NCBI GenBank assembly: GCA_024401295.1
Contig: JAKSLG010000012.1
Coordinates: 1-64,000, forward strand
Direction of reading: 5' to 3'
DNA: 64,000 nucleotides
DNA from: Bacteroidales bacterium
GTDB taxonomy: Bacteria > Bacteroidota > Bacteroidia > Bacteroidales > Marinilabiliaceae
In this document: positions 58,690 to 64,000 of the stretch, one piece after another
Layout of the letters: the number at the start of each line of letters is the position of its first letter
Position numbering within the stretch: position 1 is the stretch's first letter
The notes under the pieces: generated by a model
Database searches by the model: none
The model's input: the letters and a program-made list of their open reading frames with translations, nothing else
Told to the model about the DNA's origin: nothing
Made by a program: the position numbers and the translations under genes

Positions 58690-59037
58690 GCATACCGCCC
58701 TTTGTTCAGCGTATGCATTCCTCCATCCCTCCAATTCGCCACTGTTCCTGGCATTTTAATGCCAGTTCATGTTCTCTTCTGCCTGCATCAAACGAAGGGA
58801 AACCAATAAGTAGTTCCTGCGTAAACGAATGTTGAAAGCGAAAAAACAGCTTTATTGCATCTCGCATCGTAGTGGACATATCAGGAAATCTATAAGTTGT
58901 GACTGCTAAGCTGATGAGCGAAGCGAATAATTGCTTTCAGATTTCTTACCTTTGGGTCTCAATTACAACCACACTAAGCTTACATACAAGCCTAACGAGA
59001 ACTGGAAGTAATATGAGACGGAAAGGTGACAAAAAAC
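58690..59037. other. Non-coding region
   Basis: No convincing gene. A weak plus-strand frame (58899-59252) overlaps the RNA unit described next and has neither ribosome-binding site nor protein-like composition. Confidence 0.4.
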
Positions 59038-59180
59038 AAATCGTTACCGAAATTTTATCGGTAACGATTAAAACACTCCCGAAAGATAGTCTAACCGACT
59101 ACCAGACACAAGGGAATTTATTTGCCCTACACAAATGCCATACGCCGGGGATTGCCCACCCGCATGGGGAGTTGTTATAC
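59038..59180 (-). ncRNA. Candidate structured RNA R1
   Basis: On the minus strand a -7 box TATCTTTG (59186-59193) is followed by about 140 bases of structured sequence and a very strong terminator: AATCGTTACCGA / TCGGTAACGATT (59039-59069) with a T tract. Inside, GCCGTAT and GTATGGC pair with two wobbles and enclose G/C-rich runs; ATTTG/CAAAT and GTCT/AGAC hairpins follow. A -33 box at the normal distance is missing. Family not recognised. Confidence 0.45.
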
Positions 59181-59304
59181 GGCGGCAAAGATAATGCAAT
59201 AAAAACACAAAAGCTAAAAAAACTGATAAAAAGGAGAATCTGTAGAGTTTGAAAGAATTATATGTGTTCAGAACAAGATTGTTGTTTATGACGAGACGTT
59301 TGTA

Positions 59305-59366
59305 TGAAAAAGGCACAGGAGGAAGCCTTTCGACTAACCCCCTGCATGTAGATAAACAAACGTTTA
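59305..59366 (-). ncRNA. Candidate small RNA R2, copy A
   Basis: A transcript predicted from the promoter at 59372-59401. It carries a 29-base hairpin at 59316-59344: 7 bp (one G-U), internal loop, 4 bp (AGUC/GGCU), GAAA tetraloop; then a run of five T. Copy B at 60456 has the same geometry with different but still complementary bases, strong support for an RNA function. Confidence 0.65.
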
Positions 59367-59371
59367 CAATG

Positions 59372-59401
59372 CAAATATAGTGCAAATATTTGAATTGCAA
59401 A
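59372..59401 (-). promoter_or_regulatory. Promoter of R2 copy A
   Basis: Minus strand: -33 TTTG (59398-59401), spacer 18, -7 TATATTTG (59372-59379). Confidence 0.65.
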
Positions 59402-59445
59402 CAAGAACAATGATAAAGAATAACGAACTGGGAATGTGATAACAT

Positions 59446-59499
59446 AACGAGAGGTAGCACGACGGAGAAAATTGTCTGTCAATAATATGCTATCTCGTT
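59446..59499. repeat. Long hairpin shared by three sites
   Basis: AACGAGA-TAGCA pairs with TGCTATCTCGTT around a conserved interior (CACGACGGAGAAAATTG...). Related copies lie at about 60597-60650 and 61069-61118, the last one diverged. Confidence 0.55.
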
Positions 59500-59513
59500 T
59501 CTTTTACTTAATA

Positions 59514-59687
59514 TTGCAATGTTTATCACGAGCAGAAAGGCTACTGCCGGATATTGGGCGATTTGTCGAGTATTTAAGCCTAATATGACTGATGGAGGAA
59601 TCTCCACGTAGAGATGGAAGGTCGCCGTCCTCCGATAACCGCATAAAGACCATACAGAAACAGTGTTTTTGTATGGTCTTTCTTTTG
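59514..59687 (+). ncRNA. Candidate structured RNA R3, copy A
   Basis: A plus-strand structured segment: hairpin GGCtactGCC, a 9-bp stem ATATTGGGC (59551-59559) with GCCTAATAT (59578-59586), a hairpin ATCTCcacgtaGAGAT inside a GGAGGA/TCCTCC stem, and a 12-bp terminator AAAGACCATACA / TGTATGGTCTTT (59645-59681). Its promoter is unclear (TAATATTG at 59509-59516 has one mismatch). The second copy is at 60665. Confidence 0.5.
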
Positions 59688-59712
59688 TGTTATAATTTTG
59701 TTTGTAGGTTTG
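59684..59712 (+). promoter_or_regulatory. Array promoter box 1
   Basis: -33 TTTG (59684-59687), spacer 17, -7 TAGGTTTG (59705-59712). The first of five copies of this box in the array; what it transcribes is unclear. Confidence 0.5.
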
Positions 59713-59732
59713 CAATGGAGTTGAGCTATACA

Positions 59733-59761
59733 GCGTAGGCTCCTGCCTGCGTCGAACGGAG
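59733..59761. repeat. Hairpin element, left copy
   Basis: CGTAGGC tcct GCCTGCG forms a 7-bp hairpin followed by TCGAACGGAG. The inverse of this element occurs at 62079-62111. Confidence 0.6.
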
Positions 59762-59777
59762 ATCATATGATTACGCG

Positions 59778-60155
59778 TCATAAATATTTTGAGAGATTAC
59801 GAGTCTGAACAATTTGTGACTGTTTCAAGGCTGTAGTAATGTCTTGTTTGGTAACCTCATTAGGATTCATAACCATCTTGCTCTTCTCTGTTTTTCTATC
59901 GGCGTCAACAACATCTCCATTAGACTCCAAATCATTATTTGTTAAACGGACACATGCTCCTCCGTTCGATGGAGGGAAAATAAGTTTGTCGAAACGACTG
60001 ATTTCAGTGCTTGTGAGTTCGTCAAGATTTGCATTGATAAACTCTTCCATAGCCATCAGAAAAATATCTTCTTTCTTTGTTTTAGTCTTCTTCAAAAGAA
60101 GTTCAAATAGATCTTTCTTCTGTTTTAGAATTTCTTTGTATTGATTGTTATCCAT
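59778..60155 (-). CDS. Small Lys-rich protein of unknown function
   Basis: A 125-residue protein, not recognised. The N-terminal half is Lys/Glu-rich and probably helical (YKEILKQKKDLFELLLKKTK, ITTALKQ...); the middle holds SRFDKLIFPPSNGGACVRL and the rest is polar. No signal peptide or membrane segment. Start at ATG 60155; twelve further in-frame codons upstream are less protein-like. It is the only plausible protein gene between the two copies of the 370-base repeat, so it may be cargo of a mobile unit. It could also be a chance frame; no clear ribosome-binding site is seen. Confidence 0.5.
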   Translation of the reverse strand: MDNNQYKEILKQKKDLFELLLKKTKTKKEDIFLMAMEEFINANLDELTSTEISRFDKLIFPPSNGGACVRLTNNDLESNGDVVDADRKTEKSKMVMNPNEVTKQDITTALKQSQIVQTRNLSKYL

Positions 60156-60247
60156 GGATGAACGTATTTGGGGCCAACACACAAAAAACAATTGTGTTTT
60201 ATCGTTTAATTCAAGTGCTTATTGCAACGAAACTCGGTGTTCTTAAT

Positions 60248-60333
60248 AAAAAAAAGAGGACTCTAAGATCCTCCTTATGGCGGAACCCATACCCCCGTTA
60301 AGGAGCAAAGGCCATGTGTTGATACATTATTTT
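60248..60333 (-). ncRNA. Candidate small RNA R4 with overlapping hairpins
   Basis: Minus-strand transcript from the promoter at 60340-60369. It forms CTCCTTA-CGG / CCG-TAAGGAG (60271-60305) and then a terminator stem GAGGA / TCCTC (60256-60273) with eight T. The two stems share three bases (GAG in the RNA), so they compete to some extent. Confidence 0.55.
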
Positions 60334-60339
60334 CACACG

Positions 60340-60369
60340 CAAATATAGTTCAAATGTTTGAATTACAAA
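60340..60369 (-). promoter_or_regulatory. Promoter of R4
   Basis: Minus strand: -33 TTTG (60366-60369), spacer 18, -7 TATATTTG (60340-60347). Closely similar to the R2 promoters. Confidence 0.65.
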
Positions 60370-60455
60370 CAAGAATAATGAAAAGAAAATAATTGTGGCA
60401 CAACCCAGAGATAACGTATCCCCCAAAGAATACTGTTTATGACGACAATTCACCA

Positions 60456-60517
60456 TAAAAGAGGAACCGGAGGATCCATTTCTGGAAGCCCCCGGCATGT
60501 AGATAAACAAACGTTTA
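60456..60517 (-). ncRNA. Candidate small RNA R2, copy B
   Basis: Promoter -7 TATATTTG at 60523-60530. The hairpin at 60467-60495 has the same 7 bp + 2/1 internal loop + 4 bp + GAAA plan as copy A, but the upper stem is UCCA/UGGA and one lower pair is C-G where copy A has A-U. CTCTTTTA follows. Confidence 0.65.
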
Positions 60518-60664
60518 CAATGCAAATATAGTTCAAATATTTGAATTACAAGCAAGAATAATGATAAAGAATAACGAACTGGGAATGTGATAACATAACG
60601 AGAGGTAGCACGACGGAGAAAATTGTCTGTCAATAATATGCTATCTCGTTTCTTTTACTTAATA

Positions 60665-60838
60665 TTGCAATGTTTATCACGAGCAGAAAGGCTACTGCCG
60701 GATATTGGGCGATTTGTCGAGTATTTAAGCCTAATATGACTGATGGAGGAATCTCCACGTAGAGATGGAAGGTCGCCGTCCTCCGGTAACCGCATAAAGA
60801 CCATACAGAAACAGTGTTTTTGTATGGTCTTTCTTTTG
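60665..60838 (+). ncRNA. Candidate structured RNA R3, copy B
   Basis: Same structure as R3 copy A (offset 1151), terminator at 60796-60832. The next promoter box begins within its T tract. Confidence 0.5.
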
Positions 60839-60864
60839 CATTTAAATTTTTGTTTGTAGGTTTG
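60835..60864 (+). promoter_or_regulatory. Array promoter box 2 (R5 copy 1)
   Basis: -33 TTTG (60835-60838), spacer 18, -7 TAGGTTTG (60857-60864). Confidence 0.7.
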
Positions 60865-60870
60865 CAAAGT

Positions 60871-61022
60871 GTAAGTGTTTAAGCACTTGCAAAAAGAGCG
60901 AATTTGGATCTGTTGACCCTGGCGACGGTTGCCTTGTCATAAACAATCGGTCGTTTGTAAGATAACTCTGGACAGGCGGAGTTTAGTGTCTGGGCAGCAT
61001 TACCATATTCGCTCTTTTTTTT
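60871..61022 (+). ncRNA. Candidate structured RNA R5, copy 1
   Basis: About 150 bases. Order: 5' hairpin GTAAGTG/CACTTGC; closing stem AAAGAGCGAAT (60893-60903) with ATTCGCTCTTT (61007-61017); within it GG/CC, CTG/CAG and CCC/GGG pairs leading to a three-way junction; arm 1 CGACGGTTG / CAATCGGTCG (60923-60953, one bulge); arm 2 AACTCTG / CGGAGTT (60964-60983) with loop GACAGG; then eight T. Copy 2 changes pairs but keeps the pairing. No similarity to 6S, tmRNA, SRP RNA or RNase P RNA that I can see. Confidence 0.7.
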
Positions 61023-61052
61023 CTATTTTTTTCGTATTTAAATTTTTATTTG

Positions 61053-61060
61053 TAGGTTTG
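61053..61060 (+). promoter_or_regulatory. Array promoter box 3
   Basis: -7 TAGGTTTG with TTCG 18 bases upstream as a near -33 box, directly after the R5 terminator. Confidence 0.5.
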
Positions 61061-61066
61061 CAGACG

Positions 61067-61210
61067 AAACGAGGTAGCACGACGGATAAAATTGTCTGTC
61101 AATAATACACTATCTCGCAAAAAAGAATTGGAAGGTGTCCAAAGCGTTGTAAGACGTAAAGATCGGGGCAATTGCATCGAACCGTTGGAAGAACCAATTC
61201 TTTTTTTTAT
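61067..61210 (+). ncRNA. Candidate structured RNA R6
   Basis: Transcript of array promoter 3: first a diverged copy of the GTAGCACGACGG hairpin (61069-61118), then a domain closed by AAAGAATTGG (61122-61131) and CCAATTCTTT (61194-61203), with CCAA/TTGG inside and a GCAATTGC palindrome, ending in eight T. Confidence 0.5.
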
Positions 61211-61355
61211 TTTATTCTCTTTATATACATACGTCACCGACATCTTGCCATTAAAATCAACCCTCATCGCGCAACACTCGACAACAATCTCAACAATCCT
61301 GAACATCACAGTCTCTTTATCGTTCATGTTTTTCTGTTTTTTTTGTTAATATTCT

Positions 61356-61385
61356 TTTGCATTTAAATTTTTGTTTGTAGGTTTG
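61356..61385 (+). promoter_or_regulatory. Array promoter box 4 (R5 copy 2)
   Basis: -33 TTTG (61356-61359), spacer 18, -7 TAGGTTTG (61378-61385). Confidence 0.7.
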
Positions 61386-61391
61386 CAAAGT

Positions 61392-61543
61392 GTAAGTGTT
61401 TAAGCACTTGCAAAAAGAGCGAAGATGGATCTGTTGACCCTAACGACGGTTGCCTTGTCATTAACAACCGATCGTGTTGAAGATAACTCCAGACAGGTGG
61501 AGTTTAACGTGTGGGCAGCGTTACCATATTCGCTCTTTTTTTT
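61392..61543 (+). ncRNA. Candidate structured RNA R5, copy 2
   Basis: Same closing stem and three-way plan as copy 1. Arm 2 is AACTCCA / TGGAGTT with the same GACAGG loop (61485-61504): a U-G pair became C-G and a G-C pair became A-U. Arm 1 is CGACGGTTG / CAACCGATCG (61444-61474): G-U became G-C. Confidence 0.7.
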
Positions 61544-61573
61544 CTGTTTTTTTCGTATTTAAATTTTTATTTG

Positions 61574-61581
61574 TAGGTTTG
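61574..61581 (+). promoter_or_regulatory. Array promoter box 5
   Basis: -7 TAGGTTTG after the second R5 terminator. Confidence 0.5.
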
Positions 61582-61587
61582 CAGTGT

Positions 61588-61727
61588 CAGCCGTTTAGCT
61601 CATAGATGATAGACTTATAATCATTGCTAATCAATTAGTAGCACTATCGGCATCATGTTTGGTACAGCATTTAGTATCTGACCTCTGAAAAGACATTAAG
61701 CACTTATCGTTATTCGGTAGGTGCTTT
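61588..61727 (+). ncRNA. Candidate RNA R7
   Basis: Predicted transcript of box 5. It has a TGCTAAT...TTAGTAGCA hairpin, a GATGATA...TATCGGCATC pairing around it, and the terminator AAGCAC-TATC / GGTA-GTGCTT (61698-61723) with TTTT. The terminator overlaps the end of the minus-strand gene that follows. Confidence 0.4.
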
Positions 61728-62069
61728 TGATGTATATTTACCTCTTGCAGAACTTTTAAGTTCTGTTATTTCTTCTTTTGTAAAGCCGATGCTCTTTAAC
61801 CAATTATCAATTCGTCTTGTATCATACATATATACTTTGTCTGTGAATACGGATTGCATCACAAGCTGATATGTGGATTTTATCGTTCTGGAATGTGTGC
61901 TTTTCATAGGATAAATATCGAACTCGCCATTAAATTCAATATGATTTCCCCTTAAATCAATGATGGAACACACCTTTCGTTGATAACGTGAAATTTCTAT
62001 AAACAAACGTCTTGAAACGGCATCGTTGGCTTGTATGACCAAAACAGGATTATTGATATGATATGGCAA
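61710..62069 (-). CDS. Small protein of unknown function next to cas12a
   Basis: A 119-residue protein, not recognised. It looks like a genuine folded protein: alternating strands (NPVLVIQANDAVSRRLFIEI, CSIIDLRGNHIEFNGEFDIYP), a Ser/Thr-rich middle, and a C-terminal helix-turn-helix-like segment (RIDNWLKSIGFTKEEITEL) with a basic tail. No signal peptide. It is divergent from cas12a, with start codons 239 bases apart. Its predicted leader contains two GC-rich hairpins (62085-62138). Candidates such as a regulator, toxin or anti-phage accessory protein are speculation. Confidence 0.6.
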   Translation of the reverse strand: MPYHINNPVLVIQANDAVSRRLFIEISRYQRKVCSIIDLRGNHIEFNGEFDIYPMKSTHSRTIKSTYQLVMQSVFTDKVYMYDTRRIDNWLKSIGFTKEEITELKSSARGKYTSKAPTE

Positions 62070-62078
62070 TGTTATTAA

Positions 62079-62138
62079 CTCCCGTTCGGCGCAGGCTCCA
62101 TGCCTACGTCGTAGTTAGAAGCAAGGCTCCTGCCTTGC
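62079..62138. repeat. Two hairpins, one the inverse of the element at 59733
   Basis: CGCAGGC tccat GCCTACG (62090-62108) preceded by CTCCCGTTCGG is, in reverse, the same element as at 59733-59761. A second hairpin GCAAGGC tcct GCCTTGC lies at 62121-62138. Confidence 0.6.
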
Positions 62139-62254
62139 ATGCTACATCTTGTTGCGTATATTTTGAGAAGAAATACCAGTTTTCGCTTTTTCTTACTACC
62201 TTTAGCAATCCGCTACTGATTTTTTTGAAAAAAAAAGTCAAATGTGGTACCGGA

Positions 62255-62281
62255 TTTGAGCCACCATGCGCTTTATATTTG
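62255..62281 (+). promoter_or_regulatory. Promoter of cas12a
   Basis: Exact -7 TATATTTG at 62274-62281, 28 bases before the ATG; TTTG at 62255-62258 gives a short spacer of 15. The mRNA leader would be about 20 bases. Confidence 0.6.
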
Positions 62282-62308
62282 CAAAAAGTTGATTCAAAAG
62301 ATATACTT

Positions 62309-64000
62309 ATGAGAACATTTGACAAACTCACAAAGCTTTTCTCTCTAAGCAAAACATTGCGTTTTGAACTGAAACCTGTTGGTAAAACTCTCGATAATAT
62401 CGAGAAGAAAGGACTCATTGCCCAGGACGAACAAAGAGCAGAAGAGTATGAATTGGTAAAGACGATTATTGATGACTATCATAAATTCTTTATCCGCTTT
62501 TCACTTAACAGTCTTGTTCTAAAGCTAAAAAGAACATCAAATGAGGGTCTTGATTCGCTTGAAGAATATGTAGAGTTGGCGTCGAAGAGCAAACGGAATG
62601 AGAACGAGGAAAGCGCATTTGACAAAGTCAAGGAAAACCTTCGCAAGCAAATTGTAAAGGCATTTAAAGATACGAATGGATATGGAGACTTATTCAAGAA
62701 AGAACTTATCCAGAATGTCCTTCCTGATTATCTCACAGACGCCACTCAACGCCAGTTGGTTGACAACTTCAGCAAGTTCACAACATATTTTTCTGGGTTC
62801 CATCAGAATCGTGAGAATATGTATTCAGACGAGGCCAAATCGACAGCTATTGCATATCGTCTGATACATGAGAATCTGCCTATGTTTATTGACAACATAA
62901 AATCATTCGCCAAGATTGCTGACACAGAAGTTAAAGAGCATTTTTCTGACATAAAAAAGGCTTACGAGGAATGCCTTAATGTCAATGAAATAGCTGACAT
63001 ATTCAAACTTGACAACTTCACTCGCACACTGCCCCAAGAACAAATAGATGTATATAACAGTATTACAGGTGGCATCAACGAGTATGTCAACCTCTACAAT
63101 CAGCAACACAAAGACCAGCGTCTGCCACTGCTGAAACCTCTCTATAAAATGATATTAAGTGACAGAGAGGCTTTGTCGCGGTTACCGGAAGAGTTTGCAA
63201 GTGACGAGGAGATGATTGCGGCCATCAATGAAACACACGAAAAACTCAAGGAAGTCTTAACCGGTAATGGAGATAGTAGTTTGCAATATCTGCTTCAGCA
63301 TATTGAAGATTTTGACACGGATCATATCTATATTGCCAACGATGCCAGTCTTACTGATATTTCGCAACAGATATTTGGACAATATGACGTTTACACAAGA
63401 GGCATAAAAGAAGATATACGTCAGCAAGTAAAGCCTACCGCTAAAGAAAGGAAGGATTCGGAATTGCTCGATGAACGCATCAGCAAGATTTTCAAAACAG
63501 CAAACAGTTTCTCTATCGGCTATCTTAACTCGATGAGTGACAAGAAGATTGAGGATTATTTCGCACAACTTGGCGCATACGACAGAGACGGAGAACAGCG
63601 TGTCAATATCTTTTGCAAAATAGAGATGGCACGCATCGCTGCTGGAGACATACTAGCTGGCAAACACAGTAATCTCAACCAATCTGACAGCGACATTAAA
63701 CTTATTAAAGACTTGATGGATGCATACAAGGATTTGCAGCATTTCATCAAGCCCCTACTTGGCAACGGTGATGAAGCCGACAAGGATATTGATTTTGACG
63801 CTCGTCTGAGAGCTGTCTGGGTTGCGCTTGATGTCATCACACCGCTATATAATAAGGTCCGCAACTGGCTTACACGCAAGCCTTACAACGAGGAGAAGAT
63901 AAAGCTAAACTTTGAGAACCCAGTTCTATTGGAGGGATGGCCTAATCCAGAGGCAAATTCTTGTGTAATATTGAAAGAAGATGATAATACATACTATTTG
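62309..64000 (+). CDS. cas12a: CRISPR-associated endonuclease Cas12a (Cpf1), 5' part
   Basis: The first 564 residues of a type V-A effector, cut by the window end with the frame still open (family length about 1,200-1,350). The N-terminus, with FSLSKTLRFELKPVGKTLDN, is the WED-I crRNA-binding segment; residues about 25-320 correspond to REC1 (FTTYFSGFHQNRENMYSDEA, STAIAYRLIHENLPMF are hallmark), about 325-510 to REC2 (DISQQIFGQYDVY, YFAQLGAYD, FIKPLLGNGDEADKD), and WED-II begins at RKPYNEEKIKLNFENP. RuvC, PI and Nuc domains would lie beyond. It resembles Prevotella-type Cas12a. Known proteins of the family process their own crRNA and cut T-rich-PAM DNA. The WED-II loop lacks a usually conserved Lys (see findings). 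An own promoter is present. Confidence 0.95.
   Translation, partial: MRTFDKLTKLFSLSKTLRFELKPVGKTLDNIEKKGLIAQDEQRAEEYELVKTIIDDYHKFFIRFSLNSLVLKLKRTSNEGLDSLEEYVELASKSKRNENEESAFDKVKENLRKQIVKAFKDTNGYGDLFKKELIQNVLPDYLTDATQRQLVDNFSKFTTYFSGFHQNRENMYSDEAKSTAIAYRLIHENLPMFIDNIKSFAKIADTEVKEHFSDIKKAYEECLNVNEIADIFKLDNFTRTLPQEQIDVYNSITGGINEYVNLYNQQHKDQRLPLLKPLYKMILSDREALSRLPEEFASDEEMIAAINETHEKLKEVLTGNGDSSLQYLLQHIEDFDTDHIYIANDASLTDISQQIFGQYDVYTRGIKEDIRQQVKPTAKERKDSELLDERISKIFKTANSFSIGYLNSMSDKKIEDYFAQLGAYDRDGEQRVNIFCKIEMARIAAGDILAGKHSNLNQSDSDIKLIKDLMDAYKDLQHFIKPLLGNGDEADKDIDFDARLRAVWVALDVITPLYNKVRNWLTRKPYNEEKIKLNFENPVLLEGWPNPEANSCVILKEDDNTYYL

What the first reader, a model, noticed from the sequence alone, without database searches (positions are those of the whole stretch)
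60832..61584. Tandem pair of a three-way-junction RNA (R5) with compensatory changes, just upstream of cas12a
Seen directly: two 232-base copies (offset 521) contain an RNA-like unit bounded by AAAGAGCGAAT and ATTCGCTCTTT with a T tail. The interior has drifted but the stems hold: in arm 2 one pair changes U-G to C-G and another G-C to A-U around an unchanged GACAGG loop; in arm 1 G-U changes to G-C. Each copy has a consensus Bacteroidetes promoter. I know no RNA family with this shape. A function in the neighbouring CRISPR-Cas12a locus is possible but only inferred from position.
Basis: partly seen in the sequence, partly recalled or inferred. Interest (0 to 1): 0.85.

Follow-up and report, generated by a model that had tools for sequence, protein, structure and literature searches.

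The report
Orphan RNA partners of RNase toxins
Two copies of a small folded RNA in a bacterial genome belong to an undescribed RNA family that elsewhere lies tail-to-tail with genes for a predicted RNA-cutting toxin, so they may be antidote RNAs that outlived their toxin gene.

Summary
In detail: two 233-nt copies (92% identical, offset 521) each carry a ~131-nt three-way-junction RNA with a TAnnTTTG promoter and a terminator-like closing stem. Two distant homologues support the fold: 15 of 40 pairs show double changes.

The Cas12a link is not supported. Five other genomes were found by RNA search; in four the RNA is tail-to-tail with, and overlaps by 16-22 nt, a PBECR3-like (predicted BECR-fold RNase) ORF. 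Starting from that protein, 11 of 15 loci have a supported convergent RNA, one is weak, three show none. A model built only from protein-adjacent RNAs puts R5a, R5b and a third orphan among its top four of 15 unfiltered hits, each weak alone.

Best explanation: a new RNA family, probably the RNA antitoxin of a convergent toxin-antitoxin module; R5a/R5b are orphans (no PBECR3 found in this 75%-complete genome). Toxicity and neutralisation are inferred. Rfam gives no match; my paper searches found no description.

The parts
60835..60864 (+). promoter-like TTTG-N18-TAGGTTTG of R5a
   Evidence: read; a TAnnTTTG motif also precedes the convergent RNA in 13 of 15 PBECR3-like loci (3.3 expected)
60867..60892 (+). 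5' leader hairpin of R5a (seen only in R5a/R5b, not in the homologues)
   Evidence: fold; identical in both copies
60891..61021 (+). R5a: three-way-junction RNA, P1 closing stem doubling as terminator, arm 1, arm 2, arm1-arm2 loop complementarity CUUGUC/GACAGG
61356..61385 (+). promoter-like TTTG-N18-TAGGTTTG of R5b
61388..61413 (+). 5' leader hairpin of R5b
61412..61542 (+). R5b: second copy of the RNA
60996..61040 (-). possible remnant of a PBECR3-like C-terminus, antisense to the 3' end of R5a (reads ...KKIEKKERIW-stop; R5b reads ...KKTEKKERIW-stop); confounded by the RNA's own pairing and by A-richness
   Evidence: compare ...DDILKREKIW-stop in G514
61053..61215 (+). neighbouring RNA-like unit R4: promoter, 5' hairpin, branched domain closed by a terminator stem
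   Evidence: fold; second copy in own genome at G000:C36:62591-62696, 86%
60602..60832 (+). neighbouring RNA-like unit X (second copy 59451-59681)
   Evidence: homologue in G002 overlaps the 3' part of an ORF with a weak PBECR2 match
61574..61740 (+). fourth promoter and RNA-like unit R6, whose terminator overlaps the 3' end of the ORF below
61710..62069 (-). 119-aa ORF convergent with R6, without an ATG start; weak, non-significant MuF_C match
   Evidence: E 0.034, cutoff not reached; not PBECR3-like
62309..64000 (+). start of the Cas12a-like gene (named from recall of its sequence, no family search run); judged unrelated to R5

Best explanation
R5a and R5b are two orphan copies of a new family of small structured RNAs. 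The family's usual setting is a two-gene module: a ~125-140-aa PBECR3-like protein (predicted BECR-fold RNase) and, on the opposite strand with its own promoter, the RNA, whose terminator/closing stem overlaps the end of the protein gene. The RNA folds into a closing stem, two arms, and a pairing between the two arm loops (a compact shape like that of the purine riboswitch). Most likely mechanism: the RNA binds and blocks the RNase (an RNA antitoxin that works like type III antitoxins). In this genome the RNase gene was lost, while duplicated RNA copies kept promoter and fold; they could protect the cell against related RNases on incoming mobile elements. Shown here by sequence: the fold, the loop-loop covariation, the promoter enrichment, the tail-to-tail pairing in relatives. 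Inferred: transcription, RNase activity, toxicity, binding, neutralisation, protection.
For: Two copies plus G219 and G452: 95.9% of cells paired, 15 of 40 pairs with double changes, 0 of 500 shuffles reach either (that alignment was fitted to the model). RNA search first: five other genomes (G219, G452; G514, G519, G521); four of the five have a PBECR3-like ORF convergent with and overlapping the RNA by 16-22 nt; Pfam PBECR3 E 1.3e-6 for G452, 4e-6 G514, 1.8e-4 G519. Protein search first: 15 loci: R2 or R3 hits or alignment-predicted fold in 8 (G452; G913, G929; G253, G150, G170, G920, G922a), loop-loop test p at most 0.05 in 3 more (G094, G091, G922b). RNAalifold on five protein-adjacent RNAs alone gives the same three-way junction, with a U-A to C-G change in the loop-loop helix. 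Model R3 made from those five only: its top 4 of 15 unfiltered hits in 23.7 kb are the G929, G219, R5b and R5a RNAs, right strand and place. TAnnTTTG upstream in 13 of 15 loci, 3.3 expected. Loop-loop plus hairpin test, one representative for each of 11 lineages, Fisher p 4.9e-6.
Against: No wet-lab evidence. No PBECR3 hit reached Pfam's cutoff; L112 and L113 proteins have no PBECR3 hit at E 0.1 and join the family only through alignments A7/A8. The protein fold was not predicted. R3 with default filters did not find R5, its unfiltered hits to R5 are E 0.16 and 0.23, and the f55 RNAs gave only short pieces at ranks 9-11. The loop test was designed after I had seen the pattern; alone it fails for G253 (p 0.58), G170 (0.41), R5a (0.17), G150 (0.10), and on the other strand 4 of 19 units score better (G369, G094, G452, G514). 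An earlier cruder test gave 12 of 18 against 2.84 expected, but at least 4 of the 12 best hits (G920, G452, G514, R5a) were other pairings than claimed, and a first version was not convincing. Three of 15 loci (G286, G099, G930) show no such RNA. The window and G219 have no PBECR3 gene, so the link for R5 itself is by homology only.
Confidence: 0.6

Rival explanations
1. Type I-like antisense regulator: the RNA acts by pairing with the 3' end of the toxin mRNA (as SR4/bsrG do), and its fold only serves stability or pairing kinetics.
For: Convergent genes with overlapping 3' ends; bsrG/SR4 interact at their 3' ends (PMC7430163, passages).
Against: The overlap in the four f55 loci is only 16-22 nt, lying in the closing stem and terminator, whereas SR5/bsrE pair over 114 bp (PMC7430163, passages). 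The conserved parts (junction, loop-loop helix) lie outside the overlap. Orphans without a PBECR3 gene keep the fold. The PBECR3-like protein is 123-140 aa, not a small hydrophobic peptide.
Confidence: 0.12
2. The RNA is the RNase's substrate, guide or cofactor, not its inhibitor (for example a decoy, or an RNA that directs cutting).
For: The same pairing data fit any RNA-protein partnership; type III toxins themselves process their antitoxin RNA (PMC5086642, section 4 read).
Against: Orphan RNAs without a PBECR3 gene (R5a, R5b, G219) and RNAs beside disrupted protein genes (G521 80-aa ORF; G913 split frame; G170 short frame) fit an antidote better than a cofactor, though they do not exclude it.
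Confidence: 0.13
3. R5 has been recruited as an ordinary trans-acting small RNA, one of a cluster of promoter-RNA-terminator units (X, R4, R5, R6) duplicated by recombination between near-identical promoters, with regulatory targets unrelated to toxins.
For: Five near-identical promoter stretches and two independent duplications in 59.2-61.6 kb; R4 has a second copy elsewhere in the genome; no PBECR3 gene in G000 or G219.
Against: Family-wide tie to PBECR3; the X homologue in G002 also overlaps a gene with a weak PBECR2 match.
Confidence: 0.12
4. A DNA palindrome (mobile-element end or bidirectional terminator) rather than a functional RNA.
For: The model hits its own other strand at 34.1 and 31.2 bits; A-run/T-run symmetric closing stem.
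Against: Covariation on the + strand; 161 and 159 bits on + against 34 and 31 on -; promoter motif on the RNA strand in 13 of 15 loci against 5 of 15 on the other.
Confidence: 0.03

Closest known systems
Type III toxin-antitoxin systems (ToxIN, CptIN, TenpIN)
   Same: An endoribonuclease (here predicted) next to a small, pseudoknotted non-coding RNA
   Different: Type III modules are bicistronic operons with one promoter, an upstream repeat array and a terminator before the toxin gene (PMC5086642, section 4). Here: convergent genes, own promoter for the RNA, a single-unit RNA with two arms whose loops pair, and a BECR-type protein.
AvcID (type III-like, RNA antitoxin AvcI with a deaminase toxin)
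   Same: A protein toxin with an RNA antitoxin
   Different: AvcD is a deoxycytidylate deaminase (PMC10511110, start of abstract in a listing); gene order and RNA fold were not compared.
Type I modules with 3' overlap (bsrG/SR4, txpA/RatA)
   Same: Convergent genes overlapping at the 3' ends
   Different: Antisense pairing to the mRNA of a small toxin (PMC7430163, passages); here a short overlap and a conserved fold outside it.
PBECR/MuF-C RNase domains of polyvalent proteins
   Same: The protein partner: PBECR3 (and PBECR2 beside X)
   Different: The founding paper (PMC5512222, passages by keyword) has no occurrence of 'RNA antitoxin' or 'noncoding RNA' in its main text; an RNA partner appears to be new.
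Purine riboswitch (architecture only; recalled)
   Same: Three-way junction with pairing between two arm loops
   Different: No Rfam match at the gathering score; own promoter and terminator, no downstream gene in the same direction.

Membership tests
Type III toxin-antitoxin | RNA antitoxin of several short repeats upstream of the toxin in one operon, with a terminator between | tested here: not met
   RNA and PBECR3-like ORF are convergent, one RNA unit per ORF; feature from PMC5086642 section 4
Type III toxin-antitoxin | pseudoknotted antitoxin RNA | tested here: inconclusive
   loop-loop (kissing) pairing predicted and covarying; not the H-type pseudoknot described for ToxI and CptI (PMC5086642 passages)
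Type III toxin-antitoxin | toxin is an endoribonuclease neutralised by the RNA | not testable with these tools
   needs expression and binding assays
Type I toxin-antitoxin | antitoxin acts by base pairing with the toxin mRNA | tested here: inconclusive
   overlap only 16-22 nt in four loci; orphans exist
PBECR3 (Pfam PF18812), for the protein partner | score above Pfam's curated cutoff (30 bits) | tested here: not met
   best 28.7 bits, E 1.3e-6; 0 of 6 genomes over the cutoff; hence 'PBECR3-like'
PBECR3 (Pfam PF18812), for the protein partner | BECR fold | not tested
   structure prediction could not be queued; a sequence search of solved structures gave two unrelated hits at E 0.049
Any Rfam 15 family | match at the gathering score | tested here: not met
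   0 in the window, 0 in 12 homologous loci; below-threshold hits only in 59000-62300
Cas12a CRISPR RNA component | linkage to Cas12a in relatives or match to repeat/spacers | tested here: not met
   homologues found beside other genes; no spacer match; the repeats read share no obvious sequence with the RNA core

The most novel reading that the evidence does not exclude
The stretch 59.3-61.7 kb is an RNA-based antidote island: a bank of orphan RNA antitoxins (R5 twice, X twice, probably R4 and R6), each the partner of a different PBECR-type RNase carried by phages or conjugative elements, kept beside a CRISPR-Cas12a-like locus as standing immunity against RNases that such elements deliver. 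The tail-to-tail PBECR/RNA module would be a new type of toxin-antitoxin system.
Probability: 0.2. Interest if true: 0.92.

Novelty: new variant of a known kind. Interest (0 to 1): 0.76.

Why it matters
Known type III antitoxins are repeat RNAs in an operon with one toxin superfamily (three families in PMC5086642). This adds a distinct RNA fold with its own promoter, a different predicted RNase fold, and a tail-to-tail layout, and gives a sequence handle (models R1-R3, the loop-loop pairs) for finding more. It also suggests RNA partners for PBECR domains, a class of predicted phage and plasmid RNases, and raises the directly testable idea that cells keep toxin-free antidote RNAs.

Tried and rejected
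Rejected: (1) Cas12a-related RNA: no linkage in relatives, no spacer match. (2) Known Rfam family: none. (3) tRNA or tmRNA: none in the window or in 20 loci. (4) The 61710-62069 ORF as partner of R5: not PBECR3-like by hhalign, MuF_C E 0.034; it overlaps R6, not R5.

Led nowhere: DNA similarity for R5 in phages and plasmids, best E 2 and 6; viral-contig patterns, 0 matches for one 18-mer and 65 for a 15-mer with no R1 match in those 65 loci; an 18-mer of X gave 3 viral contigs that look unrelated; A7, L113, L108 and PBECR2 proteins in viral contigs, none confirmed; PBECR3-like proteins in phages by tblastn, none for G452, L108 and L113; X in plasmids and phages, none; A8 in a class-wide draw, 0 of 395 (no known positive appears among the 20 listed rows, so it shows little); PBECR2 of G002 in 228 genomes, only G002 itself; PHROGs, NCBIfam and PADLOC for 6 proteins, no useful hit. 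R1 in 61 relatives found only the own genome. The genome searches pre-filter: with R2 only 33-34 of up to about 1500 first-look candidates per genome were scored, so absence elsewhere is weak evidence.

Papers: 'PBECR'+'toxin' 2 papers; 'type III toxin-antitoxin'+'RNA antitoxin'+'Bacteroidetes' 2; four of five terms on convergent RNA antitoxins with kissing loops, 18 papers, 15 listed; type III listing (where 'ToxIN' was read as 'toxin'); orphan antitoxins 6; AvcID 5; 'BECR fold'+'RNA antitoxin' 0. None of the titles and abstract starts listed describes this pairing; subscription papers and most preprints are not held, so print novelty is not settled.

Full report
OBSERVATION. The two copies are real: 60831-61063 and 61352-61584, 233 nt, 92% identical, offset 521. 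Sliding identity shows the duplication ends at the flanking promoters, so the repeated unit is promoter + leader hairpin + RNA + next promoter. The RNA proper is 60891-61021 and 61412-61542. The shared fold has a 12+3-pair closing stem P1, an 8-pair second stem with a bulge, arm 1 (4+6 pairs with a bulged purine, 12-nt loop) and arm 2 (7 pairs, GACAGG loop). All 40 nested pairs hold in both copies. I noticed that arm 1's loop contains CUUGUC, complementary to the GACAGG loop (six pairs, one G-U): a kissing interaction that would explain why that loop does not change. Two copies give one double change only, which is no proof.

HOMOLOGUES. Model R1 from the two copies found nothing but itself in 61 relatives. 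In 393 genomes of the order it found two more genomes, G219 (56 bits, E 1.4e-9) and G452 (34.7 bits, E 2.9e-4). Both keep the stems with many double changes (15 of 40 pairs, 95.9% of cells paired, 0 of 500 shuffles; the alignment was fitted to the model). In both the loops still match: UCCCCA/UGGGGA in G219, CCUUGC/GCAAGG in G452. Model R2 then found G514 (85.5 bits), G519 (63 bits, cut by a contig end) and G521 (26.8 bits) among 98 relatives of G452, and only G219 itself among 101 relatives of G219. Each fully readable copy (G219, G452, G514, G521) has a TAnnTTTG box just upstream.

THE PARTNER. In G452, G514, G519 and G521 the RNA is convergent with, and overlaps by 16-22 nt, an ORF whose intact versions are 123-125 aa (G521's is 80 aa and lacks the middle). 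Pfam names it PBECR3, a predicted BECR-fold nuclease: E 1.3e-6 G452, 4e-6 G514, 1.8e-4 G519, all a little below the curated cutoff. No PBECR3 match at E 1 or better was found in G000 (75% complete) or G219.

THE CONVERSE SEARCH. The protein alignment A7 found the gene in 9 of 393 genomes of the order, and the broader A8 in 11 of 149 relatives of G253: 15 distinct loci. R2 saw no RNA at the first eight new ones, but by eye most have a convergent unit of the same plan. Five of them (G253, G150, G170, G920, G922a) align, and RNAalifold gives a three-way junction of the same plan without any input from R5; their loops read CUUGC/GCAAG in three and CUCGC/GCGAG in two, a compensatory change (93.8% of cells paired; against this, the count of further pair types did not exceed the shuffles, 492 of 500). 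Model R3 from these five finds an RNA beside the split gene of G913 (94 bits). With default filters it does not find R5. Unfiltered over eight loci (23.7 kb, both strands) its first four of 15 hits are the G929 RNA (E 0.011), the G219 RNA (0.063), R5b (0.16) and R5a (0.23), all at the right place and strand; the f55 RNAs appear only as short pieces at ranks 9-11. None is significant alone; together they are hard to put down to chance (my judgement, no test run).

COUNTS. Of the 15 protein-found loci, 8 have model- or alignment-supported RNAs (G452, G253, G150, G170, G920, G922a, G913, G929), 3 more pass the hairpin-plus-kissing test at p 0.05 or below (G091, G922b, G094; for G094 the pair scored best is not the one I saw by eye), 1 is weak (G369, GCCG/CGGC, p 0.14), and 3 show none (G286, G099, G930; G930's protein frame has stops, and G099 matches only in part). 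TAnnTTTG stands on the RNA strand in 13 of 15 loci (3.3 expected from shuffles; 5 of 15 on the other strand; the G913 stretch was centred on its known RNA, the others on the gene end). Fisher over one representative of 11 lineages for the kissing test is 4.9e-6; the test was designed after seeing the pattern, several single units fail it, and 4 of 19 units score better on the other strand. Two cruder tests before it were weaker.

A POSSIBLE REMNANT. Antisense to the 3' end of R5a and R5b, the frame reads KKIEKKERIW-stop and KKTEKKERIW-stop, in G219 VKQKRIW-stop; the protein ends DDILKRKKIW-stop in G452 and DDILKREKIW-stop in G514. This looks like a leftover protein end, but IW-stop is also fixed by the RNA's AUAUGG/CCAUAU pairing, and lysines are expected opposite a T-run, so I count it as suggestive only.

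MECHANISM. Most likely the RNA folds into a rigid, kissing-loop-locked three-way junction and binds the RNase, blocking it; separate promoters let the RNA be made in excess; the shared 3' stem may terminate both transcripts. Shown: fold, covariation, promoter motif, tail-to-tail layout. Inferred: transcription, RNase activity, toxicity, binding, neutralisation. The orphan state of R5a, R5b and the G219 copy, and RNAs beside disrupted genes (G521, G170, G913), fit an antidote that is harmless or useful without its toxin. The paired positions of R5a/R5b have drifted less than the unpaired ones (6 of 92 against 11 of 39), which suggests that the orphans are still under selection.

NEIGHBOURS. The same stretch holds X (two copies), R4 and R6, each a promoter-RNA-terminator unit or part of one. 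X has a homologue in G002 with three visible compensatory changes in one hairpin (AUCUC/GAGAU against ACACC/GGUGU, by eye); it overlaps the 3' part of a long ORF with a weak PBECR2 match (E 3.1e-4, 21.4 bits, cutoff 27.1). R6 overlaps the 3' end of an ORF with a non-significant MuF_C match (E 0.034); MuF-C is described as a PBECR domain in PMC5512222 (passages). This is the ground for the bolder reading of an antidote bank.

KNOWN OR NEW. Type III systems share 'RNase plus pseudoknotted RNA' but are repeat-RNA operons with one promoter (PMC5086642, section 4), a tested feature that is not met here; so it may work like a type III antitoxin without being filed as one. Rfam: no match. Gene names Cas12a, Cas2, bL9, LepA, RibBA and phosphoglucomutase are recalled from sequence, not from a family search.

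Noticed in passing
window 59451-59681 and 60602-60832 (+); L088:2550-2705 (+): RNA unit X, two copies (about 98% identical over 277 nt), with a homologue in G002 that overlaps the 3' part of a 934-aa ORF with a weak PBECR2 match; one hairpin shows compensatory changes.
   Followed up: partly
window 61053-61215 (+); G000:C36:62591-62696 (L087:2091-2200): RNA unit R4 has a second copy in the same genome, without the 5' hairpin, next to a small hairpin unit that resembles minus-strand units near 60445-60530 and 59290-59380.
   Followed up: partly
window 61574-61740 (+) and 61710-62069 (-): RNA-like unit R6 ends inside the 3' end of an ORF without an ATG start; the ORF has a non-significant MuF_C match and is preceded by a repeat element.
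   Followed up: partly
L091:9400-10920 (G219:C4): The G219 RNA lies in a cassette-like array: a ~27-bp repeat close to ACTTATCTTATGTAAAGCGTTTAAAAC recurs between small ORFs and this RNA unit.
   Followed up: no
window about 58314, 59732, 62091; L004 about 5490 and 7560: A dispersed palindromic element (GCGTAGGCTCC..GCCTACGTCG, sometimes followed by AAGCAAGGCTCC..GCCTTGC) recurs; one copy lies just before the truncated ORF at 62069.
   Followed up: no
L004:4818-5436: The CRISPR array downstream mixes two repeat variants (GTCTATAAGACATTTGTAATTTCTACTATTGTAGAT and GTCTAAGAGACTCATAATAATTTCTACTATTGTAGAT) with the same 3' part.
   Followed up: no
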